From the NCBI GenBank assembly GCA_037833965.1, contig AP031356.1, positions 8,020,501-8,084,500 on the forward strand: a stretch of 64,000 bases of DNA, given 5' to 3'. The stretch comes from Marchantia polymorpha subsp. ruderalis (lineage: Eukaryota > Streptophyta > Marchantiopsida > Marchantiales > Marchantiaceae). Under the pieces are notes generated by a model. The model searched no databases and was not told where the DNA came from. It saw only the letters and a program-made list of their open reading frames with translations. Shown here piece by piece: positions 19,270 through 59,587 of this stretch. Position numbers and translations under genes: made by a program. Numbering within the stretch: position 1 is the stretch's first letter; each line of letters opens with the position of its first letter.

Positions 19270-20215
19270 TGTAATAACCCACTAAAGGCTAAAACTGCAA
19301 TATAGTGGTAGAAAGGTCGAACCCACAGGGACAGAGGAACACACAGGGTACAAAGTGTCACGTTTTAACAGACTATTGAGGAGTTTGAATTCTCAGGCGA
19401 CTGTCACTCCCAGAAATACTGCAAGTGTCCACTCGGAGCGCACTCGGAGGTCGCACAGTGCAGCGTAACACACACACACACACACACACCTGAAACTACA
19501 GAAACACAACCCAGAGATCCGTTAGGACCTCTACTTCAAGATTTCAGGGGGAAAGTCTCTCACGAGCACACTCGGCAAAGCTGCGGGCAGTGACTTCCAA
19601 CTCCGGCTTTTACAACGCTTCCACTAGCTTGCTGCTAGTGTAGGAAACCCGGTTTGGACTACCTACTTCGGATCGAAGTCACTCAGACGCGGTGAACAAC
19701 ACTCTCAACTCACAAAACGCGCAGAGAACACAGGTCCACACTGAAGGACTCACTGTGAAACATTCCAGTAACACAACAACAGTCTATTGAAGAGTTTGAA
19801 TTCTCAGGCACTTGTCATTCCCAGAAATACTACAGGGGTTACCCTCAAGGCACCTGCTGCAGCGTAACCTGAATTTACAACCAAGGCTTACACGAAGTAG
19901 CAAAACTTCACTTTGGCATTCAGGGGAAAAATCCCAAGGAGTACAATCAGAAAGAAACACTCGAAGGTGTAGGGGCGAAACTGTTCAAGTATCTAACTAG
20001 TCACTGGCTCTGAGCATTGGCAGTCACCCGCAGGTGCAGATCCGAACTACTCAAGTCTCTAACCAATGTACTAGCTCTGAACATTCGGCCGAAGGCCTTC
20101 AGCTACAAAATGCGGAACGCTAAGTTGTAACTCCTCGTGCGTGGTGACAGAACTCAAGGACACAAACACGCAAAGGAAATGGGTTCCTGATCTGCACTTC
20201 TGATGGGAAAGAACC

Positions 20216-20244
20216 CCAGGCAAAACTCCTGGAACTATTTTATA
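20216..20244 (-). promoter_or_regulatory. TATA box and inverted repeat of B2 LTR
   Basis: On the minus strand TATAAAATA lies at 20236-20244 and is followed by the inverted repeat, which here has one mispaired position. The layout otherwise equals the other LTRs. Confidence 0.6.
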
Positions 20245-20280
20245 CCTTCTAAGTCCTACCTAGCACTACACTGCACTACG

Positions 20281-41900: not shown

Positions 41901-42474
41901 TCGCCAAGGGATTCGGTGGCGACTGAAATCCTCGAGACTGAGGATGATACGAGCTCGGAAGAGCAGGAAGCGGATTCGGTGCAGAAAACGCCAACAGGGG
42001 TGCTGTGCGAACAGATAGTTCCACTCCTGCGATATCTGGATCGCAAGACATCCAAATACGCAAGTGCCTTAAAACCGCAGTCTTATGTGGAGACTATCAG
42101 GCGAAGGACGAGGATCAAGGTGGCAAAGTGGGCCTCTAGTTGCCAAGTATATGTGGAAAGGAACACCGCCCTCCGACAACACCTGGCGGTCACCCAGAAG
42201 CTATACCAAGCCTTGCAGCAGCAGAAGGAGGATGCGGCGACGAAAAGCCAGGCCGATGCCGAACTAATACAGGCAAAGATCGAGTCGGAATTGCAGGAGG
42301 AGCGGAGACAGAACCAAGTCCTAGCAGCCGAGCTTGCGCGCCAGACGCGCGCCTTAGAAGAAAGTCAAAGAGCCCGCAAGGAGGATGAGGAGTTGTTGTG
42401 CAACTTGCAATCCGAGTGCTCGGATTTGAGGGCACAACGTGCGGGATTAGAAATGCAGCTGGCCGAGGTGGAGA
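38947..42474 (+). mobile_element. Family A LTR, first 3.5 kb, outer copy
   Basis: It starts TGTGGTAACACAC and follows the A LTR into the coiled-coil part of the U3 frame. At 42475 a second A LTR start begins exactly at its TG. The outer left duplication (TGACA) belongs to this LTR, while the right one follows the second LTR. This fits a nested insertion followed by LTR-LTR recombination. Confidence 0.87.
40305..42474 (+). pseudogene. U3-encoded protein, family A, incomplete copy
   Basis: From the ATG at 40305 (MSKVPQLRV) through the N-terminal domain, the linker and the first part of the coiled coil. It is incomplete at the C-terminus and broken about once before that. It is closer to 59588-62143 than to the copies in the young element. 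Confidence 0.75.
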
Positions 42475-43575
42475 TGTGGTAACACACTTTTTGTTTTTTT
42501 TGCAGAATTTAAACAATTTTAGAAAACTAGTACCAAAGCAGTGTTTGTAGCTAGAGAAGGGTACGCTAAATAGAGTGGATTGATGAGATCGTCACGAGGA
42601 CACAAAGCAGCACGTAGTCGGATATACCAACGCCAACGTCTTCGGCGCCTTCGGCAAAAGCTCCTTTTTGAGGTGTCTCTACTCACGCGCCTCTAGCGTA
42701 TAAGGAAGCTACGCTTCCGGCGCAGACACCTCAGGAGGAGGTTTTGCTAAAGACGTCAGGAGAAGGGCCCGGACCTCTAAAGGCATCCGACCATGAGTGC
42801 GCCTTCGGCGAAACGCCGCTAGCGCGGAAAGGGAAAACCTTCATAACAATCGGGATACACGGTAGATCCAGTTGGTTGAAGTTGCCTTAGAAAGAGCGCG
42901 GGACGCTCGTTCTAACGAGTCTAAGAGCGTTGGAGATGGATCAGGAATGGAGAAGTTATGAGCGTCGGAAAACTCGTAGCCGGACATGCGCCGTACGCGC
43001 TAGGGTTCACAGCCGGAAAGGATTCCCGTACGCCCTCGGCAATGCGCCTTCGGTGGAATCACGCGCTCATAGGAGGAAACCAACTCAGAGTCGGAAGCGC
43101 CTTTGACGGCTGTTCATGGAAGGAAAGCGCCGGTCGGATGTACGCCTCCGACGTGGCGCTGACGGCCGGATGCGCTGGCATGAGTTGCACTGGCGGATAT
43201 GCGCCGGCAGCAACGGACGAGGCATAAAGGACAAAATAGGCGGTACGACTGCGCGCCGGCGTAATTCGATCCGACTGGATGTGCGCCTCCGGCAAGGCGC
43301 CGACGGATAATGAACGCACCAGCGGCGACACGCCTCCGGAGAAGGGCGGGTTAAGAAAAGACAACAGGGCCGACGTATACCCTGCAGCGGACTCGAGTCC
43401 GGAAGGTGGCGGCGGCGGGAGAATTCAACGTTTAAGCATCCGAATGCGCGCAATGCGGAGACGTGAATTCGCGCATGCAAAGGGCGAACCGTTAAGCCGT
43501 ATGGCCGGCTGCGTACGTTGCAACCAGTAAGAACGTTGGACGTTCTTGAAATCGGAGAAGAAAAGACTGCGCTCC
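42475..43575 (+). mobile_element. Family A LTR, inner copy, left part
   Basis: The first 1.1 kb of an A LTR, from TGTGGTAACACAC to the point where the young A element is inserted. The LTR resumes after that element at 59332. The five bases GCTCC at its end (43571-43575) are the left target duplication. Confidence 0.92.
43571..43575. repeat. Target site duplication GCTCC, left copy
   Basis: GCTCC directly precedes the 5' LTR at 43576, and GCTCC at 59327-59331 directly follows the 3' LTR. Without the insert the flanking LTR reads through without a gap. Confidence 0.93.
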
Positions 43576-43934
43576 TGTGGTAACACACTTTTTGTTTTTT
43601 TTGCAGAATTTAAACAATTTTAGAAAACTAGTACCAAAGCAGTGTTTGTAGCTAGAGAAGGGTACGCTAAATAGAGTGGATTGATGAGATCGTCACGAGG
43701 GCACAAAGAATCACGTAGTCGGATGTACCAACGCCAACGTCTTCGGCGCCTTCGGCAAAGACTTCTTTTTGAGGTGTCTCTACTCACGCGCCTCTAGCGT
43801 ACAAGGAAGCTACGCTTCCGGCGCAGACACCTCAGGAGGAGGTTTTGCTAAAGACGTCAGGAGAAGGGCCCGGACCTCTAAAGGCATCCGACCATGAGTG
43901 CGCCTTCGGCGAAGCGCCGCTAGCGCGGAAAGGG

Positions 43935-44070
43935 AAAACCTTCATAACAATCGGGATACACGGTAGATCCAGTTGGTTGAAGTTGCATTAGAAAGAGCTC
44001 GGGACGCTCGTTCTAACGAGCCCAAGAGCGCCGGAGATGGATCAGGAATGGAGAAGTTATGAGCGTCGGA
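43935..44070 (+). repeat. Shared 130-bp U3 module, A copy
   Basis: From AAACCTTCATAAC to GTTATGAGCGTCGG. The arms are TTAGAA and TTCTAA where B and C have TTGGAA and TTCCAA, so paired positions change together. Another A copy lies at 16922-17057. Confidence 0.78.
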
Positions 44071-44926
44071 AAACTCGTAGCCGGACATGCGCCGTTCGCG
44101 CTAGGGTTCACAGCCGGAAAGGATTCCCGTACGCCCTCGGCGATGCGCCTTCGGCGGAATCACGCGCTCACAGGAGGAAACCAACTCAGAGTCGGAAGCG
44201 CCTTTGGCGGCTGTTCATGGAAGGAAAGCGCCGGTCGGATGTACGCCTCCGACGTGGCGCTGACGGCCGGATGCGCTGGCACGAGTTGCGCTGACGGATA
44301 TGCGCTGGCAGCAACGGACGAGGCATAAAGGACAAAATAGGCGGTACGACTGCGCGCCGGCGTAATTCGCTCCGGCTGGATGTGCGCCTCCAGCAAGGCG
44401 CCGACGGATAATGAACGCACCAGCGGCGACACGCCTCCGGAGAAGGGCGGGTTAGGAAAAGACAACAGGGCCGACGTATACCCTGCAGCGGACTCGAGTC
44501 CGGAAGGTGGCGGCGGCGGGAGAATTCAACGTTTAAGCATGCGAATGCGCGCAAGGCGGAGACGTGAATTCGCGCATGCAAAGGGCGAACCGTTAAGCCG
44601 TATAGCCGGCTGCGTACGTTGCAACCAGTAAGAACGTTGGACGTTCTTGAAATCGGAGAAGAAAAGACTGCGCTCCAGTCTCATTCTCTCATTCTTGACT
44701 TTGCAATTTCCAGTTCCAAGATTACGCGCAAGGGCGGAGCGACCTGCAGTGAGAGTAGAGAGTGCGGAGACGAGTTGCACAATGATCTTGGCGGACCTCG
44801 AAAGAATTGGGAGTAGCGATCTTGAACGAGCGCAGAGAGAGTGAGCAGTCAGTGCTTGAGTGGCCGACGCGCAGTGGCGATTGTGAGAGAGTGAGCGAAA
44901 GAACGTTTGTGTGTGCAGGCAACGCA

Positions 44927-47482
44927 ATGTCGAAGGTTCCCCAACTGCGAGTGTCTCCACTCAGGGTGCCGCAGATCGGTCTACGCGCATTTCAAGATGT
45001 GCTGACGAGGCTGAAGCTCGATTTTCTCCTCTGGGGGTGGAATTGGACGTGTCCGGAGATGGTGCGCGAGTATCTGCAAGAGAGACACAAGCCTTCTCGC
45101 GGATTTCGCCCACACCCAGAGAGATGGGAAATTTGCAATTGGGCGCAGGTGTTGGGCAGGTGTGCCGGCGAGGAAGGGGATCTCCTCTTCGAGGCCGATA
45201 GCGTGAAGGTGTCCCAGGAGGAAGAAGTCTCTTACAATGAGCTCTTCAAAGTGGCCAGACATCCCAAGAACGGTTTCCGGACTCGGGATTACAAGGATCG
45301 ATTGCGGAGAAATGTCGCGACAGCATTGCTGCAGATATTGCAGCCGACCAAGACCGCTTACATGCATGGTTGGCAGGTAGAGTTCGTGGAGCTAGTGTTG
45401 TCAGGAGCTCCGGTGCATTGGGCACGGCTCCTGTGGAAGGTGACGCGCCAACATGCGCAAGAAGAGAGGGGAGGAACGCTCAATCATCTATCGCCTTACT
45501 TAATCGTGTTTTACCGGGCGATGGGATGTTTGACGAATGCTGAGAAAACTCGGTTTCCGCAGCTGAGCCGGTCTTATCCAGGTAGATATTCGAGGGAGGC
45601 CGAAGTAGACACGGATCCGGACGAGGAACCTGCCAGTACGCCTCCGGCTCCGGCTCCAGCCAGAGCAGCAGAAGAACGTCGAAGTGAGCGCATTCCGCGC
45701 AAGCGGAAGTGGGATGAGAGACCTGAGGACAGGCAGCCGGAAGTACCAGCTGCGCCGACTCGTGGTCGGCCCACCCCCGAGCCTCATAGTCGACCAAAAC
45801 AGAGGGCACGCAGGATGCCAACTGTTACTGAGGAGACCAGGCGAACTCCGACCCGGCGGAATCTCACACAGGAAGAGATAATCGCTCAGGTTCTAGGGAA
45901 GACGGCAGAAACCTCTGCACAGAAGGCACCACGGCCTTCGGGAGGAGATGGACGGACTGACAGCCGGCCGACTGCGAGTCGGATGACTGAAGGTCGACAG
46001 ACGGAAGGAAGGCCAACTGAACGGCGCGTTGAACCGGACAGCAGGCCGGAAACGGAAGAGAGTTTGGCTGACGAGCCAACAATCCTCAGAGGGTCGTCTT
46101 CGGCGGAAGGCACTTCTGGAAGAACGCCCCCAACAAGCAGGCCAAGTGGAGTCAAGACGCGCAGGGTGTATCCGACTCCCAGTCGGACAACTGCTGGTCG
46201 GCCGACTGCGAGTCGGACAACAGAGAGTCAGCCGGATTCGCCGACTGCGAGACGGATGGGGCCAACGACCAGTGTGCGGACGCCTTCGGCGGACGCACCT
46301 TCAGCAAGGACACCTTCCGCGCAGATTGCGCCGGAAGGACAGGCAGCAGAAGCGGGCGGTGCAAGAGTGACAAAAGTCACTGCGGCGTCGACCCCTTCAC
46401 AAACCGAAGATCGAGCCGGAACAGGGGCTCAAGCAGTGGGATCTCCCACTGCCCTGGATATTTTAGCAGGCAGTGGAGCAGCAGTCGCAGCAGAAGCTGC
46501 TGCGCGCCACAGTTCCAGGGAGTCGCCAAGGGATTCAGTGGCGACTGAGATCCTCGAGACTGAGGATGAGACGAGCTCGGAAGAGCAAGAAGAGGATTCG
46601 GTGCAGAAAACGCCAACAGGGGTGCTGTGCGAACAGATAGTTCCACTCCTGCGATATCTGGATCGCAAGACATCCAAATACGCAAGTGCCTTAAAACCGC
46701 AGTCTTATGTGGAGACAATCAGGCGAAGGACGAGGAGCAAGGTGGCAAGGTGGGCCTCTAGATGCGGAGTATATGTGGATAGGAACACCGCCCTCCGACA
46801 ACACCTGGCGGTCACCCAGAAGCTGTACCAAGCCTTGCAGCAGCAGAAGGAGGATGCGGCGACGAAGAGTCAGGCGGAGGCCGAACTAATACGGGCAAAG
46901 ATCGAGTCGGAACTGCAGGAGGAGCGGAGACAGAACGAAGTCCTAGCAGCCGAGCTTGCGCGCCAGACGCGCGCCTTAGAGGAAAGTCAAAGAGCCCGGA
47001 AGGAGGATGAGGAGTTGTTGTGCAACTTGCAAACCGAGTGCTCGGATTTGAGGACACAACGTGCGGATTTAGAAATGCAGCTGGCAGAGGTGGAGAGCAG
47101 CTGCAGGGCACGAGGAGAGTTGGCGGCACGGGTGACTCGTTGTCTAAACGGATACACCCATTGGGAGGTGGCAGCTCAAGAGAGGGTTACACTCCGGGAG
47201 TTCGAGCTTCGGGCGGCGGCATTGACGGAAGGTGACAGTCGGAGTCGGCGGCGAGTGGCAAGAAAATTAGAAACTTTCTTGTCGGGTGCGCGCGACACTA
47301 TGGCGCACTTGCAGTCGGAAGTCACTGCAGCACTCCGACGCCTGGGGTTACGCAGCCGGTCGGAAGACTGGCAAGGTAGAGATAGTACGCGGAGCAGTCC
47401 GGCGCGCAGGAGGCGCAGCACCGGATCTGCTGAGTGCAGTAGAGTAGTTTGGTTTCGCGCAGATGCTGCGAGTGGTAGATAG
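44927..47482 (+). CDS. U3-encoded protein of family A, 5' LTR copy (851 aa)
   Basis: It starts at an ATG in the context AACGCAATG, preceded by TTTGTGTGTGCAG, which resembles a splice acceptor. Residues 1-250 are the conserved domain (LLWGWNW, RTRDYKDR, VHWARLLWKVTRQHA, GGTLNHLSPYL). A basic IPRKRKW stretch lies near residue 256. The linker to about 565 is Thr/Ser/Arg/Pro-rich with TPSADAPSA-type repeats. EQIVPLLRYLDRK then leads into a coiled coil of 200 residues, and GYTHWEV, FELRAA and RRLGLRSR mark a conserved C-terminus. No signal peptide or membrane segment is seen, so it is not an env. The role is unknown; a nuclear or particle-associated accessory protein is a guess. Confidence 0.85.
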   Translation: MSKVPQLRVSPLRVPQIGLRAFQDVLTRLKLDFLLWGWNWTCPEMVREYLQERHKPSRGFRPHPERWEICNWAQVLGRCAGEEGDLLFEADSVKVSQEEEVSYNELFKVARHPKNGFRTRDYKDRLRRNVATALLQILQPTKTAYMHGWQVEFVELVLSGAPVHWARLLWKVTRQHAQEERGGTLNHLSPYLIVFYRAMGCLTNAEKTRFPQLSRSYPGRYSREAEVDTDPDEEPASTPPAPAPARAAEERRSERIPRKRKWDERPEDRQPEVPAAPTRGRPTPEPHSRPKQRARRMPTVTEETRRTPTRRNLTQEEIIAQVLGKTAETSAQKAPRPSGGDGRTDSRPTASRMTEGRQTEGRPTERRVEPDSRPETEESLADEPTILRGSSSAEGTSGRTPPTSRPSGVKTRRVYPTPSRTTAGRPTASRTTESQPDSPTARRMGPTTSVRTPSADAPSARTPSAQIAPEGQAAEAGGARVTKVTAASTPSQTEDRAGTGAQAVGSPTALDILAGSGAAVAAEAAARHSSRESPRDSVATEILETEDETSSEEQEEDSVQKTPTGVLCEQIVPLLRYLDRKTSKYASALKPQSYVETIRRRTRSKVARWASRCGVYVDRNTALRQHLAVTQKLYQALQQQKEDAATKSQAEAELIRAKIESELQEERRQNEVLAAELARQTRALEESQRARKEDEELLCNLQTECSDLRTQRADLEMQLAEVESSCRARGELAARVTRCLNGYTHWEVAAQERVTLREFELRAAALTEGDSRSRRRVARKLETFLSGARDTMAHLQSEVTAALRRLGLRSRSEDWQGRDSTRSSPARRRRSTGSAECSRVVWFRADAASGR

Positions 47483-47515
47483 GATAGCGTAGTGCTAGTT
47501 AGGATCTTTTGAGAG

Positions 47516-47544
47516 TATAAAGTAGATCAAGGCGTTTTGCCTTG
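47516..47544 (+). promoter_or_regulatory. TATA box and inverted repeat, 5' LTR of the young A element
   Basis: TATAAAGTA (47516-47524) is followed at 47528-47544 by CAAGGC-GTTTT-GCCTTG. One stem pair differs from family B as a matched pair (A-T for C-G). This promoter should drive the genomic RNA; it lies downstream of the U3 frame. Confidence 0.65.
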
Positions 47545-48440
47545 GGACTCTTCCAGTTTCGGAAGTGCAGATCAGGAACTCACTTTCTTGGCGTGTTTGT
47601 GCATTTTGGTCCTGGCACCACGTAGAGAAGCTGCAGCATAGCGAAGTTACCGTATGTTGTAGTTGAAGGCCTTCGGCTGAATGTTCAGAGCTCGCACCCG
47701 GTTAGAGACTTGAGTAGTGCGGATCTGCACCTGCGGGTGATTTCTGATGCTCAGAGCCGGCTGCGAGTTAGAGACTTGAACAGTTCCCCCTTACTCCTTC
47801 GAGTGACATATCCTGATTGTACTCCTACGGGAAGTTTCCCCTGAATGCCAATGTGAAGTTTCATTACTTCGTGTAAACCTTGGTTTGTAATTCAGGTTGT
47901 GTGTGTGTTACTGGATCGTGTTTTCAGTAAGTTCTCAGTCGGGTCTGCACTCCCTGCGTTTTGTGTGATAGTCGAGGGTGACGTCCACGGCGTACGTAGA
48001 GGCTTCGTTCCGAAGTGAGAAGTCCAGTCCGGGTACCCCCGCTAGTTCCTGGCGGAAGGGCAGTAAAAGCCGGAGTGGGAGGCACTTCCTGCAGAACCTC
48101 TGAGTGAACTTGCGAGACACTTTCCTCCTGAAATCCGAAGCGGAGGTCCTGACCGACCTCCGAGTTGTGCTTTTTGCCAGTTTCAGGTGTGTGTGTGTGT
48201 GTGTTGAGTGACCAAGCTGTACCGTGCATCCTCCGAGCATCCTCCGAGTTGAGTTCCTCCTCCGAGTCGAGCCTCCGAGTCGAGCACTACAGTATTTCTG
48301 GGAGTGACAGTCGCCTAGAATTCAAACTCTACCAAAAGTCTGTTAAACGTGACACTTTTACTCTGTGTGTTGCCTCTGTCCCTGTGGGTTCGATCTTTTT
48401 ACCACCATACTGCAGTTTTAGCCTTTGGTGGGTTATTACA

Positions 48441-48723
48441 TAAGGAGCCGACAACTTCTTTTTGGCGCCGCTGCCGGGGACAGTGTGTCAACACCAGAGT
48501 ACTTGAGCAGCAATCTCAGTTAAGTCCTCAGTCGGGCCTGCACTCCCTGCGTTTGGTGTGAGTCGAGGGTGACGTCCACGGCGTATGAAGAGGCTTCGTT
48601 CCGAAGTGGGAAGTCCAGTCCGGGTACCCTACGCTAGTTCCTGGCGGAAGGGCAGTAAAAGCCGGAGTGGGAGTCACTACCTGCAGAGCCTCTGAGTGAA
48701 CTTTTGAGATGAATGCTCGGTGA
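48441..48723 (+). other. Leader of the young A element
   Basis: It holds a 22-base spacer and the primer site (48463-48482). From 48517 to 48706 it carries a second copy of LTR U5 sequence (47925-48115), with GTCGAGGGTGACGTCCACGG, GAGGCTTCGTTCCGAAGTG and GCGGAAGGGCAGTAAAAGCC. The gag start codon follows at 48724. Confidence 0.85.
48463..48482 (+). promoter_or_regulatory. Primer binding site (tRNA-Asp type)
   Basis: TGGCGCCGCTGCCGGGGACA is identical to the B1 site and lies the same 22 bases inside the LTR end. It is complementary to the 3' end of plant tRNA-Asp apart from one base. Confidence 0.87.
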
Positions 48724-51583
48724 ATGTCGACGAGCGATGGTGTGGGGGACCTGAGTGCGAGAGCCACACGTAAGCTCCGTCGAGATTCGGAAAAAAAAAA
48801 AAAAAAAAAAAAAAAAAAGCCGTGGAAACAAAACGGCGAACTAAAAAGAAGACTCCCGGTGAGGACTCTGCAGAAAGATCGCCATCACCGACTACTGGAA
48901 GACAAAGGTGTTCCAGTTCACCTACCGAGAGCATTGAGCTAATGATTCTATTGGACATCCCTCCGACAGGAACTCTTCCTGAGTTTGGCCAACCTAGGAT
49001 CAGTCCGTCGACAGGATCACCGATGGCAGAACATCAAGCCAATCTCCGCCAGGTGTTTTCCCAACCTACCACCAAACATTCGTATCCAAGATACACGGGA
49101 ACGGGCGACGACGATGATGCAGATTCATACATAAAGCTCTTCGAGTCTGTCTCCATCGCCAATCGTGAGACCAGTGATGAAGACAGATTACGAATCTTTC
49201 CTAGCCTGCTACGCAAACGAGCGCGTAGCTGGTACAACCATGAGAGCACCGACCCCACTGGCATTCGGACCTGGGCTCAGCTCAAGGAAAAGTTTCTGAA
49301 GCGGTTCCGCGAACTCGGATATGACAGTCGAGTTCTGACCCGGCTTCGAAATCTTCGACGCGAGCGGAAGGAGAATCTTCGAGACTACACTGAGAGATTC
49401 CAAGACCTCCTAGATCGAATTCCGAAGACAGGCCCGGGAGAACCGTATTCGGTACAACAGGCAGTGGATTGGTATGTGACAGGGCTCCCAAGAGAAATGG
49501 AGACCTTCTGTAGGAGAGGCAAGACTGACACAATCCAAGATGTGATAGCTTCCGCGGAGACCTTTGAGACGTCAACCCTTGACACTCGAAGACGCGACCG
49601 ACGGTCGACGAAGAAGAAGTCGCAAGGCGGACGTCGGAAGAGAAGGAACTCGCCTTCCTCGACAGAAGAATCAAGCTCCTCCGAATCAAGTTCTTCCTCG
49701 GAAGAGGAAGAGGACTCGTCATCTTCAGAAGAAGAAAGACGGAAGAAGAAACGCAGTGCGATCAAGAAGAAGGATCGAGGTAAGGGAATCCCAGTGAAGA
49801 CTCAAGGGGACATCGCAGCCAAGGTAGACAACCTGGTGAAGAATTTTGCGGACCTGAAAGTTCATGTAGTGGGAGGCCAAGACCGACGTAAATCACCTGC
49901 AAGACAACGAGCGAATCTCTGGTGTACTACGTGCGGACAGGTGGGACATGCCAACACGGAGTGCATGTCCGCGAGGCCATCTTACCCAGTGAATGCGGTC
50001 GAATGGGCACCACAGTGGGAGAACCCCATGTATTATGCTGAGCCGCCTATGTATTATGCTGAGCAGGTGGAGGACACCGCCTACTCGGTACAGACAGCTC
50101 CAGCTACAACTCCGAACCCACCGGTGCATATACCGCGCTTTGTTCCGAGGGAAATGGCGGGTACACTCCCACCAAGGCGCATGGCACCTCCAGGAAATCA
50201 CACAGGAAATCACCGACCTCGACCACAATTCGATGGTTGCTACAACTGCGGAGACATGGGGCATTACGCGCCAAGTTGTCCCCACCCGAGGAAGCCAATG
50301 GGGTATGCACCATTGTGCAGCAATTGCAAGAAGTCCGGACATACAGCAGCTGAATGTGACCAGCCCCAAATCCCTAGGCCAGCCGTGCGTTTCGTATCAA
50401 CACCTGGCAAGGAAGAGGTGCAGGTCAACCAGGTAGAACTGAGTCTGGACCCAGCTGAAGGAGACGAAGTATGGCCAGAGGAAGAAGTAATGTGCGGCCG
50501 GGTAGAAACCCGAAGTTCGAAGAGGAGAGGAGAAGGCCATGAGGACACTCGCCGCCTCGAGCGTAGGGAAGAGAGGAGGAAGTCTAAAGAAGTTAGAGAA
50601 GGCCAAAGGAGAACGCCAAGTACACCTCCGGCTATGAGAAACACCCAGCCGGAGCAGAACTCAGAAAAGGCGGACAGGTATTCAGAAGAGTTCCGGACTC
50701 GAGATTACCTTCCGGACATCAAAGATGAGGTGAGTCACCTCATCAAGGAAGCACTGGGCGCCGGAATGACATCCGACGACCGGAAGGCAGTTAGGCCCCC
50801 TACACCCCTTCCGACCGCGAGTACAGGGAAACTTCCGGCCGTGACTTCCAGCACTCCCTACGACATAGTGAAAGACATGGGGAGCCAGAGGGCAAATATT
50901 TCCTTCCACCAGTTGTTGGAAGACAATAAGACGTACAGGAGGATGCTGATGCTTTCGTTGCGCCGACCACGCAAACCCCGAAAAGAGAAACTTCCGGCTG
51001 TGTACAGAGTGGAAGGAGGAGACCTGGGACCTCCAGAGATCGAAGTAGAGATCGGAGGCTGCGTCATTCAGAAGGTACCAGTGGACTCCGGCTCGGGCGT
51101 GAATATCATGACCGAGGAGACAGCGAACTCCTTGGGGTTCCAGACCTTCGAGCCTACATCCCGAGTATTGCGACTGGCCGATCAAACACGCAGAATGCCA
51201 CTAGGAATGTTGAGCAATGTGAGAACCAACATTGGAGGAGTGGACTTTCAACTGTCCTACATAATACTGCAACCTCTGATGAAGAAAGGTTATGATGTGC
51301 TGCTTGGCAGACCGTGGCTATACGAAGCCAAAGCAAGGTGTGACTGGAGTAGGAAGAGATTACAGTTCCGTAGCCCTGCGGACCCTCCGACTGTCATTAC
51401 CGTACCGTGGACCAAGGTACCCCATGAGGGCGAAACACCTTCCACCACCTCCGGTTACACAACCGGAGGGGAGACCAGCTCAACATGCACTTCAGAGACC
51501 GAAACGTCGGAAGACTTTGTGGGCTACGTCACTTGCTGCTCCATTGAGGAGGAAAGAGACAAGTGTATCCGGATGAGGAATAG
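48724..51583 (+). CDS. gag: gag-protease region of the young A element
   Basis: It starts MSTSDGVG in parallel with B1 (MSTGASGS). A retrotransposon gag domain (SYIKLFESVSIANRE to RELGYDSRVL) is followed by a Lys/Ser/Glu-rich stretch. Three CCHC knuckles follow at about 49923-49964, 50238-50279 and 50316-50357, of form C-x2-C-x4-H-x4-C. Aspartic protease motifs are DSGSGVN (near 51084) and LLGRPWL. Gag builds the particle and packages RNA; the protease cuts the polyprotein. The region looks nearly whole, with perhaps one or two breaks. Its acidic tail ends at the UAG of the read-through signal. Confidence 0.87.
48791..48818 (+). repeat. A28 homopolymer
   Basis: Twenty-eight consecutive A residues near the start of gag. 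The family B sequence has no such run at the equivalent place. Confidence 0.95.
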
Positions 51584-51589
51584 CAACTA
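51581..51589 (+). promoter_or_regulatory. Read-through signal UAG-CAA-CUA (family A)
   Basis: Same protease/RT boundary as the B signals. The third codon changes from UUA to CUA, which still fits UAG-CAR-YYA. Flanking sequence aligns between families (GAGGAA before, GGACTGGG after). Confidence 0.68.
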
Positions 51590-54424
51590 GCAGCCGGACT
51601 GGGCAGAAGCGAAATCAGTCACACAGAGGGGATTGTTGACCCGAGTGATTGCTGCGAACTGCAGCTCAGTCCAGGTAAAGGCTTGAAGGTGTCAAGCCAG
51701 GTACAAGGCGAAGAGTTGAACAGGGTACAGGCGTTTCTTCGCCAGTATGAGGATGTCTTCGCATGGAAGATTGAAGACATGAAAGGCATACCTGCAAGGT
51801 ATGGAGAGCACAGGATCGACTTGTTGGACGAGGCAGTTCCGGTTCGCCAACGCCAATACAGGCTCAACCCAAAATATTCATTATTGGTGAAGGACGAAAT
51901 CGATAAGTACCTGAGCGCAGGAATCATCTACCCGGTACTTAGTAGCGAGTGGGTGTCGCCTATCGTGATCGTGCCCAAGAAACTGACGGGTAAGATCCGG
52001 GTGTGCCAGGACTTTCGAAAGCTGAACGCAGCAACGAGGAAGGACCATCACCCTCTTCCTTTCACGGACTCTATTTTAGACCATGTAGCAGGGCATGAAT
52101 GCTACAGTTTCCTAGACGGATTTTCCGGCTACAACCAGGTGTCCATCAGGGAACAGGACAAGGACAAAACAACCTTCACAACCGACTGGGGAACCTATGC
52201 TTATCACAAGATGCCGTTCGGTCTGTGCAACGCGCCAGCGACGTTCCAGCGGATGATGACAGACATCTTCCAAGAGCACCTGAGGAAGTTCCTAGAAATT
52301 TTCATCGACGACTTTTGTGTCTTCGGTAAGAGGTCGGAGCACCTTAACCATCTTCGGCAAACGTTCGACAGGTGTAGGGAAAGCAGCTTGTCCTTACACC
52401 CTGAGAAATGTTTTTTCTTCATGACCAGCGGAATCCTGCTGGGGCACCGAGTTTCGTCCGATGGCATTGCAGTGGATGTAGAGAAGGTGAAGATTATTCT
52501 CGAACTGCAGCCGCCAACGAATCTGCGTGAGTTGAGGGCCTTCCTTGGCCATGTAGGTTATTACAGAAGGTTCATAAATATGTACGCCATCTTGGCAGCC
52601 GATCTGACGAAGCTGCTTAAGAAGGATGAACCCTATGTGTGGGGCAAGGAGCAACAGCTGGCCTTTGAAACGCTCAAAGCCAAACTGACGACTGCTCCGG
52701 TTCTGAGAAGTCCGGATTGGAACAGACCTTTCCATGTCTATGTAGACACGTCGGCGTTTGCAATCGGGGTGGTTCTCAGTCAGAAGGACGACAACAAGAA
52801 AGACTACCCGATTTACTTCGCGAGTCGTCAGTTGTCAGCAGCAGAGAAGAAGTACACGACAACTGAGAGGGAGGCGTTGGGAATGGTGTACTCCTGTAAG
52901 AAGTTCCGACATTATTTGATCTGCTATGAGTTCGTGTTTCATGTAGATCATTACGCCTTACAGCACCTAGTGAAGAAGGCGGATCTGTCCGGACGAATTG
53001 CCAGGTGGGTACTACTGCTGCAGGAATTCACCTACACTGTACAGACACGGAAAGGCGTTCACCATGAGAACGCGGACTACCTCTCCCGACTATGGACCGA
53101 ACCAATAGAGGAGGAAGTAGTGGATGATTTTCCCGACGAACAACTTTTTCAGTTGTCCGCCAGCCACGAGTCCAGGTACGCGGACTTATACAGGTTTCTG
53201 CTCACACTCCAATGTCCGGAAGGATTGGATGCGGAGCAGCGCACAGTCTTCGTTCATAAAGCGGGACCTTACCAGCTCCAACAAGGGGTCTTGTTCAAGA
53301 AAATGGCAGACGAGAGGTTGTGCAGATGTCTAGAGGAGTCTGAAGTACCGCGAGTTGTCAAAGCCATGCACACAGAAGACGCTGGTGGTCACTACGCCAC
53401 CAGAAACACAGTGACCAAAATTGTGAATGCAGGATACTGGTGGCCGACGATGTTCAAAGATGTACACGACTACGTTCGCAAATGCGACAGCTGCCAGAGG
53501 ACGGGAAGGCCGACTCCGACCACGAGATGGCCTCTTACACCAATAATGCCATTGGCACAATTTGAAAAGTGGGGGATCGACTTCGTGGGACCAATACAAC
53601 CTGTCACTAAAGGCACGCGCAGGCGCTACATATTGGTAGCAACAGACTATGCGACCAAGATGGTGGAGGCAGAAGCCACAAGGCACGACGACGCAGCCGC
53701 AGTAGCACGGTTCCTATTCGAATCCATCATCACCCGCTACGGGTGCCCACTAGAAATAGTCAGTGACAGAGGAACGCACTTTCTGAATCAGGTGATAGAA
53801 AGTTTGACGCGGCACTTCCAGATTAAGCATCGGAAGACTACTCCATACAACCCCAAGGCAAATGGTCTGACAGAGAAGTCCAATGGATTACTCTGTAAGA
53901 TACTCCTCAAAGTGACTGTAAACCATGCTCATGACTGGGATACCAAGCTACCGGCCGCCTTATGGGCATATAGAACGGCAGAAAAAGTCACCACCAGGCA
54001 AACACCTTACTTCCTAGTTTATGGGCAGCATCCGATCTTACCCATCGAATTCGAGATACCTACCAAGAGGACCTTAGATCAGAGAAGGCTGGACGCGGAA
54101 GAAAGTCAGGCATATCGACTGCAAGAGGTAATGGCACTGGAGGAAAGACGTCAAGAGGCCGAAGATCGGACAAAGCAATTACAACTCAGGCGGAAGGAGA
54201 AGTACGATCGAAGGCTCAAACCAGTACTGCTGGAGAAGGGCGATTTGGCTCTGCTATACGATAGCAGACATGCTAGATTTCCAGGCAAGCTCCACTTGAG
54301 GTGGATGGGACCTTACAAGGTGATAGAAGTTTTTCCAAATGGATCCATCCAACTCGCAGAACTGACGGGAGAATGGTTAGGCACCCGCGTGAACGGATGG
54401 CGTCTGAAGAAATACCACGTGTAA
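51584..54424 (+). CDS. pol: pol of the young A element: RT, RNase H, integrase
   Basis: It has 946 codons after the UAG, the same length as both B pols. Order: RT with DGFSGYN and FIDDF, RNase H with VYVDTS, TEREALG, HVDHYAL and NADYLSRL, integrase with the HHCC finger (MHTEDAGGH, CDSCQR), D-D-35-E (GIDFVGP, SDRGTHF, NGLTEKS) and a GPY module (RWMGPYKV). No chromodomain, and no env follows; the stop lies 24 bases before the polypurine tract. Conservation with B is very high throughout, unlike the U3 protein linker. All catalytic residues are present. Confidence 0.94.
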   Translation, partial: QLAAGLGRSEISHTEGIVDPSDCCELQLSPGKGLKVSSQVQGEELNRVQAFLRQYEDVFAWKIEDMKGIPARYGEHRIDLLDEAVPVRQRQYRLNPKYSLLVKDEIDKYLSAGIIYPVLSSEWVSPIVIVPKKLTGKIRVCQDFRKLNAATRKDHHPLPFTDSILDHVAGHECYSFLDGFSGYNQVSIREQDKDKTTFTTDWGTYAYHKMPFGLCNAPATFQRMMTDIFQEHLRKFLEIFIDDFCVFGKRSEHLNHLRQTFDRCRESSLSLHPEKCFFFMTSGILLGHRVSSDGIAVDVEKVKIILELQPPTNLRELRAFLGHVGYYRRFINMYAILAADLTKLLKKDEPYVWGKEQQLAFETLKAKLTTAPVLRSPDWNRPFHVYVDTSAFAIGVVLSQKDDNKKDYPIYFASRQLSAAEKKYTTTEREALGMVYSCKKFRHYLICYEFVFHVDHYALQHLVKKADLSGRIARWVLLLQEFTYTVQTRKGVHHENADYLSRLWTEPIEEEVVDDFPDEQLFQLSASHESRYADLYRFLLTLQCPEGLDAEQRTVFVHKAGPYQLQQGVLFKKMADERLCRCLEESEVPRVVKAMHTEDAGGHYATRNTVTKIVNAGYWWPTMFKDVHDYVRKCDSCQRTGRPTPTTRWPLTPIMPLAQFEKWGIDFVGPIQPVTKGTRRRYILVATDYATKMVEAEATRHDDAAAVARFLFESIITRYGCPLEIVSDRGTHFLNQVIESLTRHFQIKHRKTTPYNPKANGLTEKSNGLLCKILLKVTVNHAHDWDTKLPAALWAYRTAEKVTTRQTPYFLVYGQHPILPIEFEIPTKRTLDQRRLDAEESQAYRLQEVMALEERRQEAEDRTKQLQLRRKEKYDRRLKPVLLEKGDLALLYDSRHARFPGKLHLRWMGPYKVIEVFPNGSIQLAELTGEWLGTRVNGWRLKKYHV

Positions 54425-54448
54425 ATGTTCGCGTGGGCGCTCACAATT

Positions 54449-54461
54449 GAGGAGGGGGGCA
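54449..54461 (+). promoter_or_regulatory. Polypurine tract
   Basis: GAGGAGGGGGGCA directly precedes the 3' LTR, in the position of the plus-strand primer. The same tract precedes the LTR at 16562. Confidence 0.85.
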
Positions 54462-55812
54462 TGTGGTAACACACTTTTTGTTTTTTTTGCAGAATTTAAA
54501 CAATTTTAGAAAACTAGTACCAAAGCAGTGTTTGTAGCTAGAGAAGGGTACGCTAAATAGAGTGGATTGATGAGATCGTCACGAGGGCACAAAGAATCAC
54601 GTAGTCGGATGTACCAACGCCAACGTCTTCGGCGCCTTCGGCAAAGACTTCTTTTTGAGGTGTCTCTACTCACGCGCCTCTAGCGTACAAGGAAGCTACG
54701 CTTCCGGCGCAGACACCTCAGGAGGAGGTTTTGCTAAAGACGTCAGGAGAAGGGCCCGGACCTCTAAAGGCATCCGACCATGAGTGCGCCTTCGGCGAAG
54801 CGCCGCTAGCGCGGAAAGGGAAAACCTTCATAACAATCGGGATACACGGTAGATCCAGTTGGTTGAAGTTGCATTAGAAAGAACTCGGGACGCTCGTTCT
54901 AACGAGCCCAAGAGCGCCGGAGATGGATCAGGAATGGAGAAGTTATGAGCGTCGGAAAACTCGTAGCCGGACATGCGCCGTTCGCGCTAGGGTTCACAGC
55001 CGGAAAGGATTCCCGTACGCCCTCGGCGATGCGCCTTCGGCGGAATCACGCGCTCACAGGAGGAAACCAACTCAGAGTCGGAAGCGCCTTTGGCGGCTGT
55101 TCATGGAAGGAAAGCGCCGGTCGGATGTACGCCTCCGACGTGGCGCTGACGGCCGGATGCGCTGGCACGAGTTGCGCTGACGGATATGCGCTGGCAGCAA
55201 CGGACGAGGCATAAAGGACAAAATAGGCGGTACGACTGCGCGCCGGCGTAATTCGCTCCGGCTGGATGTGCGCCTCCAGCAAGGCGCCGACGGATAATGA
55301 ACGCACCAGCGGCGACACGCCTCCGGAGAAGGGCGGGTTAGGAAAAGACAACAGGGCCGACGTATACCCTGCAGCGGACTCGAGTCCGGAAGGTGGCGGC
55401 GGCGGGAGAATTCAACGTTTAAGCATGCGAATGCGCGCAAGGCGGAGACGTGAATTCGCGCATGCAAAGGGCGAACCGTTAAGCCGTATAGCCGGCTGCG
55501 TACGTTGCAACCAGTAAGAACGTTGGACGTTCTTGAAATCGGAGAAGAAAAGACTGCGCTCCAGTCTCATTCTCTCATTCTTGACTTTGCAATTTCCAGT
55601 TCCAAGATTACGCGCAAGGGCGGAGCGACCTGCAGTGAGAGTAGAGAGTGCGGAGACGAGTTGCACAATGATCTTGGCGGACCTCGAAAGAATTGGGAGT
55701 AGCGATCTTGAACGAGCGCAGAGAGAGTGAGCAGTCAGTGCTTGAGTGGCCGACGCGCAGTGGCGATTGTGAGAGAGTGAGCGAAAGAACGTTTGTGTGT
55801 GCAGGCAACGCA

Positions 55813-58368
55813 ATGTCGAAGGTTCCCCAACTGCGAGTGTCTCCACTCAGGGTGCCGCAGATCGGTCTACGCGCATTTCAAGATGTGCTGACGAGGCTGA
55901 AGCTCGATTTTCTCCTCTGGGGGTGGAATTGGACGTGTCCGGAGATGGTGCGCGAGTATCTGCAAGAGAGACACAAGCCTTCTCGCGGATTTCGCCCACA
56001 CCCAGAGAGATGGGAAATTTGCAATTGGGCGCAGGTGTTGGGCAGGTGTGCCGGCGAGGAAGGGGATCTCCTCTTCGAGGCCGATAGCGTGAAGGTGTCC
56101 CAGGAGGAAGAAGTCTCTTACAATGAGCTCTTCAAAGTGGCCAGACATCCCAAGAACGGTTTCCGGACTCGGGATTACAAGGATCGATTGCGGAGAAATG
56201 TCGCGACAGCATTGCTGCAGATATTGCAGCCGACCAAGACCGCTTACATGCATGGTTGGCAGGTAGAGTTCGTGGAGCTAGTGTTGTCAGGAGCTCCGGT
56301 GCATTGGGCACGGCTCCTGTGGAAGGTGACGCGCCAACATGCGCAAGAAGAGAGGGGAGGAACGCTCAATCATCTATCGCCTTACTTAATCGTGTTTTAC
56401 CGGGCGATGGGATGTTTGACGAATGCTGAGAAAACTCGGTTTCCGCAGCTGAGCCGGTCTTATCCAGGTAGATATTCGAGGGAGGCCGAAGTAGACACGG
56501 ATCCGGACGAGGAACCTGCCAGTACGCCTCCGGCTCCGGCTCCAGCCAGAGCAGCAGAAGAACGTCGAAGTGAGCGCATTCCGCGCAAGCGGAAGTGGGA
56601 TGAGAGACCTGAGGACAGGCAGCCGGAAGTACCAGCTGCGCCGACTCGTGGTCGGCCCACCCCCGAGCCTCATAGTCGACCAAAACAGAGGGCACGCAGG
56701 ATGCCAACTGTTACTGAGGAGACCAGGCGAACTCCGACCCGGCGGAATCTCACACAGGAAGAGATAATCGCTCAGGTTCTAGGGAAGACGGCAGAAACCT
56801 CTGCACAGAAGGCACCACGGCCTTCGGGAGGAGATGGACGGACTGACAGCCGGCCGACTGCGAGTCGGATGACTGAAGGTCGACAGACGGAAGGAAGGCC
56901 AACTGAACGGCGCGTTGAACCGGACAGCAGGCCGGAAACGGAAGAGAGTTTGGCTGACGAGCCAACAATCCTCAGAGGGTCGTCTTCGGCGGAAGGCACT
57001 TCTGGAAGAACGCCCCCAACAAGCAGGCCAAGTGGAGTCAAGACGCGCAGGGTGTATCCGACTCCCAGTCGGACAACTGCTGGTCGGCCGACTGCGAGTC
57101 GGACAACAGAGAGTCAGCCGGATTCGCCGACTGCGAGACGGATGGGGCCAACGACCAGTGTGCGGACGCCTTCGGCGGACGCACCTTCAGCAAGGACACC
57201 TTCCGCGCAGATTGCGCCGGAAGGACAGGCAGCAGAAGCGGGCGGTGCAAGAGTGACAAAAGTCACTGCGGCGTCGACCCCTTCACAAACCGAAGATCGA
57301 GCCGGAACAGGGGCTCAAGCAGTGGGATCTCCCACTGCCCTGGATATTTTAGCAGGCAGTGGAGCAGCAGTCGCAGCAGAAGCTGCTGCGCGCCACAGTT
57401 CCAGGGAGTCGCCAAGGGATTCAGTGGCGACTGAGATCCTCGAGACTGAGGATGAGACGAGCTCGGAAGAGCAAGAAGAGGATTCGGTGCAGAAAACGCC
57501 AACAGGGGTGCTGTGCGAACAGATAGTTCCACTCCTGCGATATCTGGATCGCAAGACATCCAAATACGCAAGTGCCTTAAAACCGCAGTCTTATGTGGAG
57601 ACAATCAGGCGAAGGACGAGGAGCAAGGTGGCAAGGTGGGCCTCTAGATGCGGAGTATATGTGGATAGGAACACCGCCCTCCGACAACACCTGGCGGTCA
57701 CCCAGAAGCTGTACCAAGCCTTGCAGCAGCAGAAGGAGGATGCGGCGACGAAGAGTCAGGCGGAGGCCGAACTAATACGGGCAAAGATCGAGTCGGAACT
57801 GCAGGAGGAGCGGAGACAGAACGAAGTCCTAGCAGCCGAGCTTGCGCGCCAGACGCGCGCCTTAGAGGAAAGTCAAAGAGCCCGGAAGGAGGATGAGGAG
57901 TTGTTGTGCAACTTGCAAACCGAGTGCTCGGATTTGAGGACACAACGTGCGGATTTAGAAATGCAGCTGGCAGAGGTGGAGAGCAGCTGCAGGGCACGAG
58001 GAGAGTTGGCGGCACGGGTGACTCGTTGTCTAAACGGATACACCCATTGGGAGGTGGCAGCTCAAGAGAGGGTTACACTCCGGGAGTTCGAGCTTCGGGC
58101 GGCGGCATTGACGGAAGGTGACAGTCGGAGTCGGCGGCGAGTGGCAAGAAAATTAGAAACTTTCTTGTCGGGTGCGCGCGACACTATGGCGCACTTGCAG
58201 TCGGAAGTCACTGCAGCACTCCGACGCCTGGGGTTACGCAGCCGGTCGGAAGACTGGCAAGGTAGAGATAGTACGCGGAGCAGTCCGGCGCGCAGGAGGC
58301 GCAGCACCGGATCTGCTGAGTGCAGTAGAGTAGTTTGGTTTCGCGCAGATGCTGCGAGTGGTAGATAG
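55813..58368 (+). CDS. U3-encoded protein of family A, 3' LTR copy (851 aa)
   Basis: The protein is identical to that of 44927-47482. Because it lies downstream of pol within the transcribed part of the element, this is the copy a genomic or spliced RNA could express, as MMTV does for sag in its 3' LTR. The TTTGTGTGTGCAG just before the start codon could serve as an acceptor. Which copy is expressed, and from which promoter, cannot be told from sequence. Confidence 0.85.
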   Translation: MSKVPQLRVSPLRVPQIGLRAFQDVLTRLKLDFLLWGWNWTCPEMVREYLQERHKPSRGFRPHPERWEICNWAQVLGRCAGEEGDLLFEADSVKVSQEEEVSYNELFKVARHPKNGFRTRDYKDRLRRNVATALLQILQPTKTAYMHGWQVEFVELVLSGAPVHWARLLWKVTRQHAQEERGGTLNHLSPYLIVFYRAMGCLTNAEKTRFPQLSRSYPGRYSREAEVDTDPDEEPASTPPAPAPARAAEERRSERIPRKRKWDERPEDRQPEVPAAPTRGRPTPEPHSRPKQRARRMPTVTEETRRTPTRRNLTQEEIIAQVLGKTAETSAQKAPRPSGGDGRTDSRPTASRMTEGRQTEGRPTERRVEPDSRPETEESLADEPTILRGSSSAEGTSGRTPPTSRPSGVKTRRVYPTPSRTTAGRPTASRTTESQPDSPTARRMGPTTSVRTPSADAPSARTPSAQIAPEGQAAEAGGARVTKVTAASTPSQTEDRAGTGAQAVGSPTALDILAGSGAAVAAEAAARHSSRESPRDSVATEILETEDETSSEEQEEDSVQKTPTGVLCEQIVPLLRYLDRKTSKYASALKPQSYVETIRRRTRSKVARWASRCGVYVDRNTALRQHLAVTQKLYQALQQQKEDAATKSQAEAELIRAKIESELQEERRQNEVLAAELARQTRALEESQRARKEDEELLCNLQTECSDLRTQRADLEMQLAEVESSCRARGELAARVTRCLNGYTHWEVAAQERVTLREFELRAAALTEGDSRSRRRVARKLETFLSGARDTMAHLQSEVTAALRRLGLRSRSEDWQGRDSTRSSPARRRRSTGSAECSRVVWFRADAASGR

Positions 58369-58401
58369 GATAGCGTAGTGCTAGTTAGGATCTTTTGAGA
58401 G

Positions 58402-58430
58402 TATAAAGTAGATCAAGGCGTTTTGCCTTG
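58402..58430 (+). promoter_or_regulatory. TATA box and inverted repeat, 3' LTR
   Basis: Copy of 47516-47544. In the 3' LTR it could drive transcripts outward into the flanking LTR. Confidence 0.6.
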
Positions 58431-59587
58431 GGACTCTTCCAGTTTCGGAAGTGCAGATCAGGAACTCACTTTCTTGGCGTGTTTGTGCATTTTGGTCCTG
58501 GCACCACGTAGAGAAGCTGCAGCATAGCGAAGTTACCGTATGTTGTAGTTGAAGGCCTTCGGCTGAATGTTCAGAGCTCGCACCCGGTTAGAGACTTGAG
58601 TAGTGCGGATCTGCACCTGCGGGTGATTTCTGATGCTCAGAGCCGGCTGCGAGTTAGAGACTTGAACAGTTCCCCCTTACTCCTTCGAGTGACATATCCT
58701 GATTGTACTCCTACGGGAAGTTTCCCCTGAATGCCAATGTGAAGTTTCATTACTTCGTGTAAACCTTGGTTTGTAATTCAGGTTGTGTGTGTGTTACTGG
58801 ATCGTGTTTTCAGTAAGTTCTCAGTCGGGTCTGCACTCCCTGCGTTTTGTGTGATAGTCGAGGGTGACGTCCACGGCGTACGTAGAGGCTTCGTTCCGAA
58901 GTGAGAAGTCCAGTCCGGGTACCCCCGCTAGTTCCTGGCGGAAGGGCAGTAAAAGCCGGAGTGGGAGGCACTTCCTGCAGAACCTCTGAGTGAACTTGCG
59001 AGACACTTTCCTCCTGAAATCCGAAGCGGAGGTCCTGACCGACCTCCGAGTTGTGCTTTTTGCCAGTTTCAGGTGTGTGTGTGTGTGTGTTGAGTGACCA
59101 AGCTGTACCGTGCATCCTCCGAGCATCCTCCGAGTTGAGTTCCTCCTCCGAGTCGAGCCTCCGAGTCGAGCACTACAGTATTTCTGGGAGTGACAGTCGC
59201 CTAGAATTCAAACTCTACCAAAAGTCTGTTAAACGTGACACTTTTACTCTGTGTGTTGCCTCTGTCCCTGTGGGTTCGATCTTTTTACCACCATACTGCA
59301 GTTTTAGCCTTTGGTGGGTTATTACAGCTCCAGTCTCATTCTCTCATTCTTGACTTTGCGATTTCCAGTTCCAAGATTACGCGCAAGGGCGGAGCGACCT
59401 GCAGTGGGAGTAGAGAGTGCGGAGACGAGTTGCGCAAGGATCTTGGCGGACCTTGAAAGACCTGTGAGTAGCGATCTTGAACGAGCGCAGAGAGAGTGAG
59501 CAGTCAGTGCTTGAGTGGCCGACGCGCAGTGGCGATTGTGAGAGAGCGAGCGAAAGGGATAACGTTTGTGTGTGTGCAGGCAACGCA

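What the first reader, a model, noticed from the sequence alone, without database searches (positions are those of the whole stretch)
43576..59326. A long gene inside the LTR itself, so each element carries it twice
Seen: in the complete A element an 851-aa frame lies wholly within each LTR, upstream of the LTR's own TATA box, hence in U3. The same arrangement occurs in family B LTRs and in a solo-like A LTR. Known: U3-encoded proteins are rare; MMTV sag lies in the 3' LTR and HIV nef overlaps U3, while plant Tat/Ogre extra ORFs lie inside the element. Inferred: this is a U3 accessory gene of plant Ty3 elements. It explains the giant LTRs, and solo LTRs would leave free-standing copies. I know of no described plant LTR gene of this type, but I could not search.
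Basis: partly seen in the sequence, partly recalled or inferred. Interest (0 to 1): 0.92.

Follow-up and report, generated by a model that had tools for sequence, protein, structure and literature searches.

The report
Retrotransposon gene hidden inside its LTR
In the liverwort Marchantia, a family of jumping genes carries an extra protein gene inside its long terminal repeats, so a complete element has two copies and a leftover solo repeat can keep one.

Summary
Confirmed. The window is from a Marchantia polymorpha (or near-identical) genome. The element at 43576-59326 has two 4,865-bp LTRs differing at one base, TG...CA ends, a 5-bp target-site duplication, a tRNA-Asp primer site and a PPT 20 bp after pol. 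A sense 851-codon frame lies wholly inside each LTR, between the LTR start and a conserved TATA box, so in U3. It is no chance frame: among 29 copies the N-terminal domain has median pairwise dN/dS 0.22, against 1.02 and 1.29 in the other sense frames; 500 shuffled LTRs gave no frame over 384 codons. The same placement holds in 8 of 8 near-identical copies fetched, 19 of 23 informative copies of a second group and 24-26 of 30 of a third. Two solo LTRs with target-site duplications carry the gene; one keeps it intact. 6,428 LTR ends but 1,385 LTR-internal junctions were counted, so over half the LTR copies are solo or truncated. The protein has no informative Pfam, PDB or fold match; named relatives are all Marchantia. 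Predicted: helical N-domain, basic NLS-like motif, variable linker, long coiled coil. Best reading: a selected U3-encoded accessory gene, placed like MMTV sag. Expression and function are inferred.

The parts
43571..43575 (+). left target-site duplication GCTCC
43576..48440 (+). 5' LTR of element A (4,865 bp)
44688..44697 (+). CTCATTCTTG, conserved initiator-like motif 229 nt before the ATG (candidate internal start site, inferred)
44927..47482 (+). U3 ORF, copy 1 (851 aa plus stop)
47516..47521 (+). TATAAA of the presumed main LTR promoter, conserved in family B and L013
48463..48480 (+). primer binding site, matches tRNA-Asp(GTC)
48822..51590 (+). gag and protease frame
51683..54424 (+). RT, RNase H, integrase frame (no second RNase H in Pfam scan)
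54445..54461 (+). polypurine tract, directly before the 3' LTR (left edge approximate)
54462..59326 (+). 3' LTR of element A
55813..58368 (+). U3 ORF, copy 2
58402..58407 (+). TATAAA in the 3' LTR (position by LTR identity)
59327..59331 (+). right target-site duplication GCTCC
59588..62140 (+). stop-free U3 ORF of the older A LTR into which element A inserted
40305..42473 (+). U3 ORF of a truncated A LTR, 1 stop
28464..30509 (-). U3 ORF of an A-like LTR on the minus strand, truncated, 3 stops
17909..19213 (+). U3 ORF of a truncated A-like LTR, 1 stop
908..3769 (+). U3 ORF of family B, no stop (954 aa from this ATG), in the partial LTR 1-4786
11043..16364 (-). 5' LTR of the family B element; its U3 ORF at 12024-14867 has 2 stops
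19270..24669 (-). 3' LTR of a second family B element; its U3 ORF at 20284-23169 has 1 stop

Best explanation
The frame is a real accessory gene that these Marchantia Ty3 retrotransposons keep in U3, under purifying selection. SHOWN: it lies inside the LTR in three sequence groups, and before the TATA where that was in hand (A, B, L013); solo LTRs keep it; its N-terminal domain is constrained at protein level. INFERRED from retroviral reverse transcription: the genomic RNA, started after the TATA in the 5' LTR, carries the gene once, near its 3' end; copying of U3 during DNA synthesis gives each new insertion two copies, and LTR-LTR recombination leaves one in the solo LTR. INFERRED, about 45%: the mRNA starts in U3 itself, about 230 nt before the ATG at a conserved initiator-like motif, and ends in the same LTR, as MMTV sag can be made from its own U3 promoter. 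INFERRED, about 35%: the protein is a nuclear dimer (NLS-like motif, long coiled coil) that acts in trans on the element's own DNA or RNA, e.g. transcription, anti-silencing or nuclear entry. Origin, inferred, about 50%: a gene in the env-like position after pol was taken into U3 when the working PPT came to lie upstream of it.
For: Boundaries: two LTRs with 1 difference in 4,865, TG..CA, TSD; 4 of 4 near-identical insertions with both edges in hand have 5-bp TSDs; P0016-like solo LTR with TSD TAGTT. Placement: 8 of 8, 19 of 23, 24-26 of 30. Selection: 29 copies, 174 codons compared without gaps, median pairwise dN/dS 0.215 (404 of 406 pairs usable), frame+1 1.02 (385 pairs), frame+2 1.29 (387 pairs); the 6 stop-free copies alone 0.217 (15 pairs). 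A versus B: pN/pS 0.298/0.701 (N part) and 0.324/0.818 (C part), near gag-protease (0.278/0.801), while pol is far more conserved (0.063/0.824). TATA after the ORF in A, B and L013. Motif CTCATTCTTG (up to 2 mismatches) in A, B and 25 of 27 loci; all 27 leaders after it have 0 or 1 ATG where shuffles give 1.8-4.7 on average. NLS-like PRKRKW or variant in 9 of 13 aligned proteins. C part predicted with a 131-residue helix, mean pLDDT 75.8. Solo-type excess: 6,428 LTR ends against 1,385 5' and 1,177 3' junctions, reversed-pattern controls 0. PPT 20 bp after the pol stop. MMTV U3 promoter P2: PMC9412291, passages.
Against: No RNA, ribosome or protein data. The initiator-like motif is absent in 30 of 30 P0016-like loci, so an own promoter at this motif is at best a feature of the A/B/P0009-like groups; I saw no obvious TATA before it. 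The N-domain model is poor (pLDDT 55.8) and has no PDB fold match at E <= 0.001. Most copies in the P0009 and P0016 lists have stops, so selection acts on source copies only. Copies are related, so the 404 pairs are not independent. The predicted 5' LTR partners of L019 and L051 were not at the expected places, so outside A only family B shows parts of both LTRs of one element, its 3' LTR being cut after 457 bp. The TATA position was checked in few LTRs only (A, two of B, L013).
Confidence: 0.87

Rival explanations
1. The frame is expressed not from a U3 promoter but as a spliced subgenomic RNA of the full-length transcript, with a donor in the leader and an acceptor in the 3' LTR, as for retroviral nef or env.
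For: The gene lies downstream of pol on the genomic RNA, the env/nef position. In element A good acceptor-like sequences occur at the LTR tip (T-rich run then GCAG) and just before the leader (TTTCCAG). A CAG at the tip is also found in 8 of 27 P0016-like tips.
Against: The tip CAG is absent in both family B tips and in 18 of 19 P0009-like tips; the TTTCCAG is not conserved in B or in the P0009-like copies aligned. Donors were not tested.
Confidence: 0.3
2. A host gene family: the frame is a Marchantia gene captured by the element, or LTR copies that the host has taken over.
For: 38 of 42 profile hits are annotated as Marchantia hypothetical proteins; an intact frame exists in a solo LTR (L003).
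Against: The copies whose edges I could establish sit in LTRs; no host relative or outgroup was found by two protein searches; many copies decay with stops.
Confidence: 0.12
3. Chance or composition: a long frame with no function in a G+C-rich repeat.
For: The middle third is P/S/A-rich and diverges fast (33% identity A-B).
Against: Longest frame in shuffles 384 against 898; dN/dS 0.215 in frame against 1.02 and 1.29 off frame; the protein is recognisable at 38-65% identity in distant copies.
Confidence: 0.01
4. The LTR edges are wrong and the repeat is a tandem or segmental duplication, so the gene is really internal (env-like position).
For: Five copies at a 10,662-bp period exist on C6, and the gene is the next long frame after pol.
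Against: 5-bp TSDs at both edges, PBS and PPT at the inner edges, and two solo LTRs with TSDs.
Confidence: 0.01

Closest known systems
Mouse mammary tumour virus sag/naf (U3-encoded ORF)
   Same: ORF inside U3, so present in both LTRs; sag can be expressed from its own U3 promoter (PMC9412291, passages).
   Different: A vertebrate retrovirus with env; Sag is an immune protein. Sequence likeness was not tested. Here the frame is 851 aa in a 4.9-kb LTR of a plant Ty3 element.
aORFs/eORFs of plant Ty3 elements (Athila ORF-1, Ogre PMD, Retand TRP28, Grande gene23)
   Same: Accessory frame, conserved in many copies, often downstream of pol; one is reported nuclear and another is predicted to bind DNA (PMC7264820, parts 1-2 of 3; PMC6317226 and PMC11963269, passages).
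   Different: The texts seen describe these frames in the internal region; the Retand and Grande ones are antisense. Here it is sense and within the LTR. No Pfam match to PMD, Transposase_28, Transposase_32 or ATHILA in 33 scanned members (E <= 10, but HMMER drops most matches above about 0.1).
Retrosat2/RIRE3/RIRE8 (rice, LTR about 3 kb or more, ORF0)
   Same: Large LTR plus an unknown fast-evolving extra ORF (PMC3485330, passages).
   Different: ORF0 is described as upstream of the gag-pol ORF; the passages seen do not put it in the LTR.
HIV-1 nef (recalled, not tested)
   Same: 3' accessory gene that reaches into U3.
   Different: Only overlaps U3 and is made by splicing.

Membership tests
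Ty3/Gypsy LTR retrotransposon (Metaviridae) | gag and protease, then RT, RNase H, integrase in this order | tested here: met
   Pfam order in both frames
Ty3/Gypsy LTR retrotransposon (Metaviridae) | LTRs with TG..CA, PBS, PPT, 5-bp TSD | tested here: met
OTA clade, Tat branch | additional RNase H domain (aRH) | tested here: not met
   no second RNase H in the Pfam scan of pol A and B
OTA clade, Athila branch | no aRH (PMC6317226, passages) and tRNA-Asp primer (recalled as typical) | tested here: met
   PBS matches a tRNA-Asp(GTC) gene
OTA clade, Athila branch | position in RT/RH/INT phylogeny | not tested
   no labelled lineage references at hand; best named non-Marchantia pol hits are Riccia sorocarpa, top rows 67-76%
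OTA clade, Athila branch | Athila ORF-1 (PF03078), reported in 16% of Athila elements (PMC6317226) | tested here: not met
   no such Pfam match in 33 members; not decisive
U3-encoded accessory gene (MMTV sag-like placement) | ORF wholly between LTR start and the promoter TATA | tested here: met
   LTR start; TATA in A, B, L013:
U3-encoded accessory gene (MMTV sag-like placement) | protein-level selection | tested here: met
U3-encoded accessory gene (MMTV sag-like placement) | own U3 promoter | tested here: inconclusive
   motif conserved in A/B/P0009-like, absent in 30 of 30 P0016-like
U3-encoded accessory gene (MMTV sag-like placement) | protein made | not testable with these tools
   no RNA or proteome data

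The most novel reading that the evidence does not exclude
Each LTR, the thousands of solo ones included, is or was a complete gene unit: a promoter in the 5' part of U3, a nuclear trans-acting protein, and the LTR's own end signal. The element has moved a regulator of its own LTR (activator or anti-silencing factor) into the LTR, so that loss of the body by recombination still leaves the regulator in the genome, able to act on the remaining elements.
Probability: 0.27. Interest if true: 0.9.

Novelty: new variant of a known kind. Interest (0 to 1): 0.74.

Why it matters
U3-coded genes are known from a few vertebrate retroviruses; the review and survey passages on plant extra ORFs that I saw treat them as internal. 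A plant Ty3 lineage that keeps a selected 850-codon gene in U3 gives a reason for giant LTRs and changes what a solo LTR is: not only a promoter but a gene copy. In Marchantia at least 38 database proteins called hypothetical belong to this protein family by profile, which matters for annotation. Marchantia is a small, haploid, transformable model (recalled), so whether an LTR-borne gene is made and controls its element can be tested directly.

Tried and rejected
Splice acceptor at the LTR tip (A: T-run then GCAG): absent in both B tips and in 18 of 19 P0009-like tips, present in 8 of 27 P0016-like tips; dropped as the main route, kept as a rival. Initiator-like motif as a general feature: absent in P0016-like loci, so restricted. 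Relation of the N-domain to the plant transposon domain PF20167: an eye-level likeness recalled from memory; hmmscan of 13 and 33 members gave no match, and a genome search with PF20167 gave nothing, nor did its controls ring: a lead only. Fold search of the N-domain: no PDB match at E <= 0.001; profile against PDB sequences: none up to E 1. Likeness of the U3 protein to gag: best E 0.13, none of note. Expected 5' LTRs of L019 and L051: not found; L072 holds another copy on the opposite strand, L073 none. A first motif scan did not turn minus-strand loci and was replaced. P0016's own locus looked like an intact gene from the search table, but its 27-kb region has only one frame over 200 codons on that strand (296), in a solo LTR. 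Papers: 9 searches were answered; no title or abstract start in the listings showed a plant LTR-borne gene. The library is open-access only, and supplements were not available.

Full report
WHERE. The window lies at C7:8020501-8084500 of a 241-Mb, nine-contig genome. All named hits of the U3 protein are Marchantia polymorpha (16 of 16; 38 of 42, the other 4 unnamed), and P0016, an M. polymorpha subsp. ruderalis protein, matches a locus of this genome at 98-100% in its best-aligned parts, so the host is M. polymorpha or very near it.

ANATOMY. Self-comparison gives 43576-48440 = 54462-59326 over 4,865 bp; one base differs. Ends TGTGGTAACAC...GGTTATTACA. The element sits in an older LTR of its own family, whose two halves flank it, and GCTCC stands on both sides. 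PBS at 48463 is complementary to the end of a tRNA; the matching 21-mer occurs 31 times exactly in the genome, and the one place I read is a tRNA-Asp(GTC). gag-protease and RT-RNase H-integrase frames follow. The pol frame ends at 54424; the PPT and the 3' LTR follow within 40 bp.

THE FRAME. 44927-47482 and 55813-58368, 851 aa. TATAAA lies 33 nt downstream of the stop and is conserved in family B and L013 with the bases after it, so the frame is in U3. 500 shuffled LTRs give at most 384 codons.

IS IT ALWAYS IN THE LTR? The tool scored 40 of 2,718 candidates with A's DNA and cut out 8. In all 8 the LTR start is 1,350-1,351 bp before the ATG and the LTR end 959-965 bp after the coding part. 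Six are the two ends of three elements (TSDs CTTTC, GCTCC, GTACT; the second is the window's own), one is a solo LTR (L003, TSD CGAGC) and L004 is a 3' LTR whose partner I did not fetch. With P0009 (79 of 11,396 candidates scored; 30 loci cut), 23 loci reach far enough upstream; 19 show the LTR start, 18 against differing flanks and L019 after PPT and pol. The four misses are L016, L022, L030 and L031; seven loci (L009-L015) are uninformative on the start, though L013 shows an LTR end. With P0016 (81 of 10,927 scored; 30 loci cut), 29 of 30 begin to match their relatives 330-415 bp upstream of the ORF, L055 and L056 being besides copies of one another from the first base; L066 begins only 16 bp upstream. 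An LTR tip is found there in 24 of 30 with at most 9 of 29 mismatches, all with different flanks, against 1 of 600 shuffles; a looser gapped match gives 26 of 30. L051 has pol end and PPT before it. The P0016 locus itself is a solo LTR of about 3.84 kb with TAGTT directly at both ends; the same five bases recur twice more within the next 100 bp of that flank. Against this, the 5' partners of L019 and L051 were not at the expected distance. Family B in the window has a 5' LTR (11043-16364) with the gene, gag-pol, and a 3' LTR start that is 99.8% identical over 457 bp, then cut by a later insertion.

SELECTION. N-terminal 174 codons of 27 loci plus A and B, compared position by position without gaps: median pairwise dN/dS 0.215 (404 of 406 pairs), off-frame 1.02 (385 pairs) and 1.29 (387 pairs). 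23 of the 29 copies have one or more stops there; the six without give 0.217 in 15 pairs (range 0.15-0.31). The copies are related, so pairs are not independent. Between A and B synonymous sites are near saturation; pN is 0.298 (N part), 0.498 (middle) and 0.324 (C part), gag-protease 0.278 (470 codons), pol 0.063. So the gene is held about as tightly as gag and much less than pol.

COPY NUMBER. Up to 3 mismatches: 6,428 LTR ends, 1,385 LTR-internal junctions, 1,177 PPT-LTR junctions; reversed-pattern controls 0. Two LTR ends per body are expected; 4.6 are seen. Truncated copies count among the ends, so this is an upper bound for solo LTRs. The patterns are made for A/B/P0009-like tips, and I did not check how many of these LTRs hold the frame.

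PROTEIN. The window's A protein has only sub-cut-off Pfam matches (best DUF7761, E 0.065, at the 0.1 limit, limit 10, best SKG6 0.042); B and D have none at E 0.1. Among 13 and 33 relatives the weak matches are scattered, mostly coiled-coil or low-complexity families in one to three members (lowest Extensin_1 1.9e-4 in one member, CENP-K 0.0018 with two), and no retroelement family is among them. AlphaFold2 gives a weak, mostly helical N-domain (pLDDT 55.8) and a long coiled coil (pLDDT 75.8). A PRKRKW-type basic motif occurs in 9 of 13 aligned proteins. Of 42 profile hits, 38 are named Marchantia and 4 come from unnamed 'lgn' contigs. The pol finds Riccia sorocarpa at 67-76% in the top rows (120 of 4,488 hits listed), yet no Riccia protein was hit by the U3 protein; that hints at a gene restricted to, or much changed in, Marchantia, but the protein search scores only about 8,000 candidates that share 5-residue words.

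HOW IT MAY WORK. Reverse transcription copies U3 from the RNA's 3' end to both DNA ends (established for LTR elements; recalled), so a U3 gene is single in RNA and double in DNA. For its own mRNA, a conserved CTCATTCTTG ends 207-248 nt before the ATG in A, B and 24 of 25 loci with the motif (165 in L020), and the leader after it has no or one ATG (19 of 25 loci none; A and B one each). It fits the plant initiator consensus YTCANTYY (recalled). It is missing from P0016-like loci. MMTV sag has such a U3 promoter (PMC9412291, passages).

LITERATURE. PMC7264820 (parts 1 and 2 of 3 read, plus a term search) places aORFs in the internal region and has no 'in/within/inside the LTR' phrase. PMC6317226 (passages) sorts eORFs by 5'/3' part and strand, has no word Marchantia and notes LTRs up to about 5 kb. 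PMC3485330, PMC11963269, PMC9985172, PMC12885004, PMC1560396, PMC10714607: passages. Phrase searches for LTR-borne ORFs gave 11, 5 and 4 papers; I opened passages of five: MMTV (PMC9412291), a gene inside a maize element (PMC1560396) and three where the phrase means something else (PMC7319988, PMC11117352, PMC13195028). The other 15 I saw only as listings. Novelty is claimed only against this open-access library.

VERDICT. Observation right, reading right as to place and reality; function open.

Noticed in passing
G000:C6:10770097-10815297: Five copies of the U3 ORF listed at 100% identity, at an exact 10,662-bp period on one strand: perhaps a tandem array of LTR-internal units by unequal exchange between LTRs.
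   Followed up: no
window 47924-48117 and 48516-48709: About 195 bp of the LTR's 3' part is repeated at 92% in the leader between PBS and gag.
   Followed up: no
P0015 (MARPO_0006s0274): A database gene model joins the C part of a U3 ORF, a KE/KD-rich stretch and gag: likely a misjoined retroelement model.
   Followed up: no
window 1-31856: Nested family B and A-like insertions in both orientations; a + strand B LTR (1-4786) cuts the 3' LTR of a minus-strand B element after 457 bp.
   Followed up: partly
L069-L071, G000:C6:13697600-13724599: Inside the P0016 solo LTR a 178-bp inverted repeat (96%) lies at the coiled-coil coding part.
   Followed up: no
window 48791-48818: Run of 28 A just before the gag frame.
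   Followed up: no
window 63070-63140: The right edge of the older A LTR has no TSD match; what follows resembles the internal start with a short deletion.
   Followed up: partly
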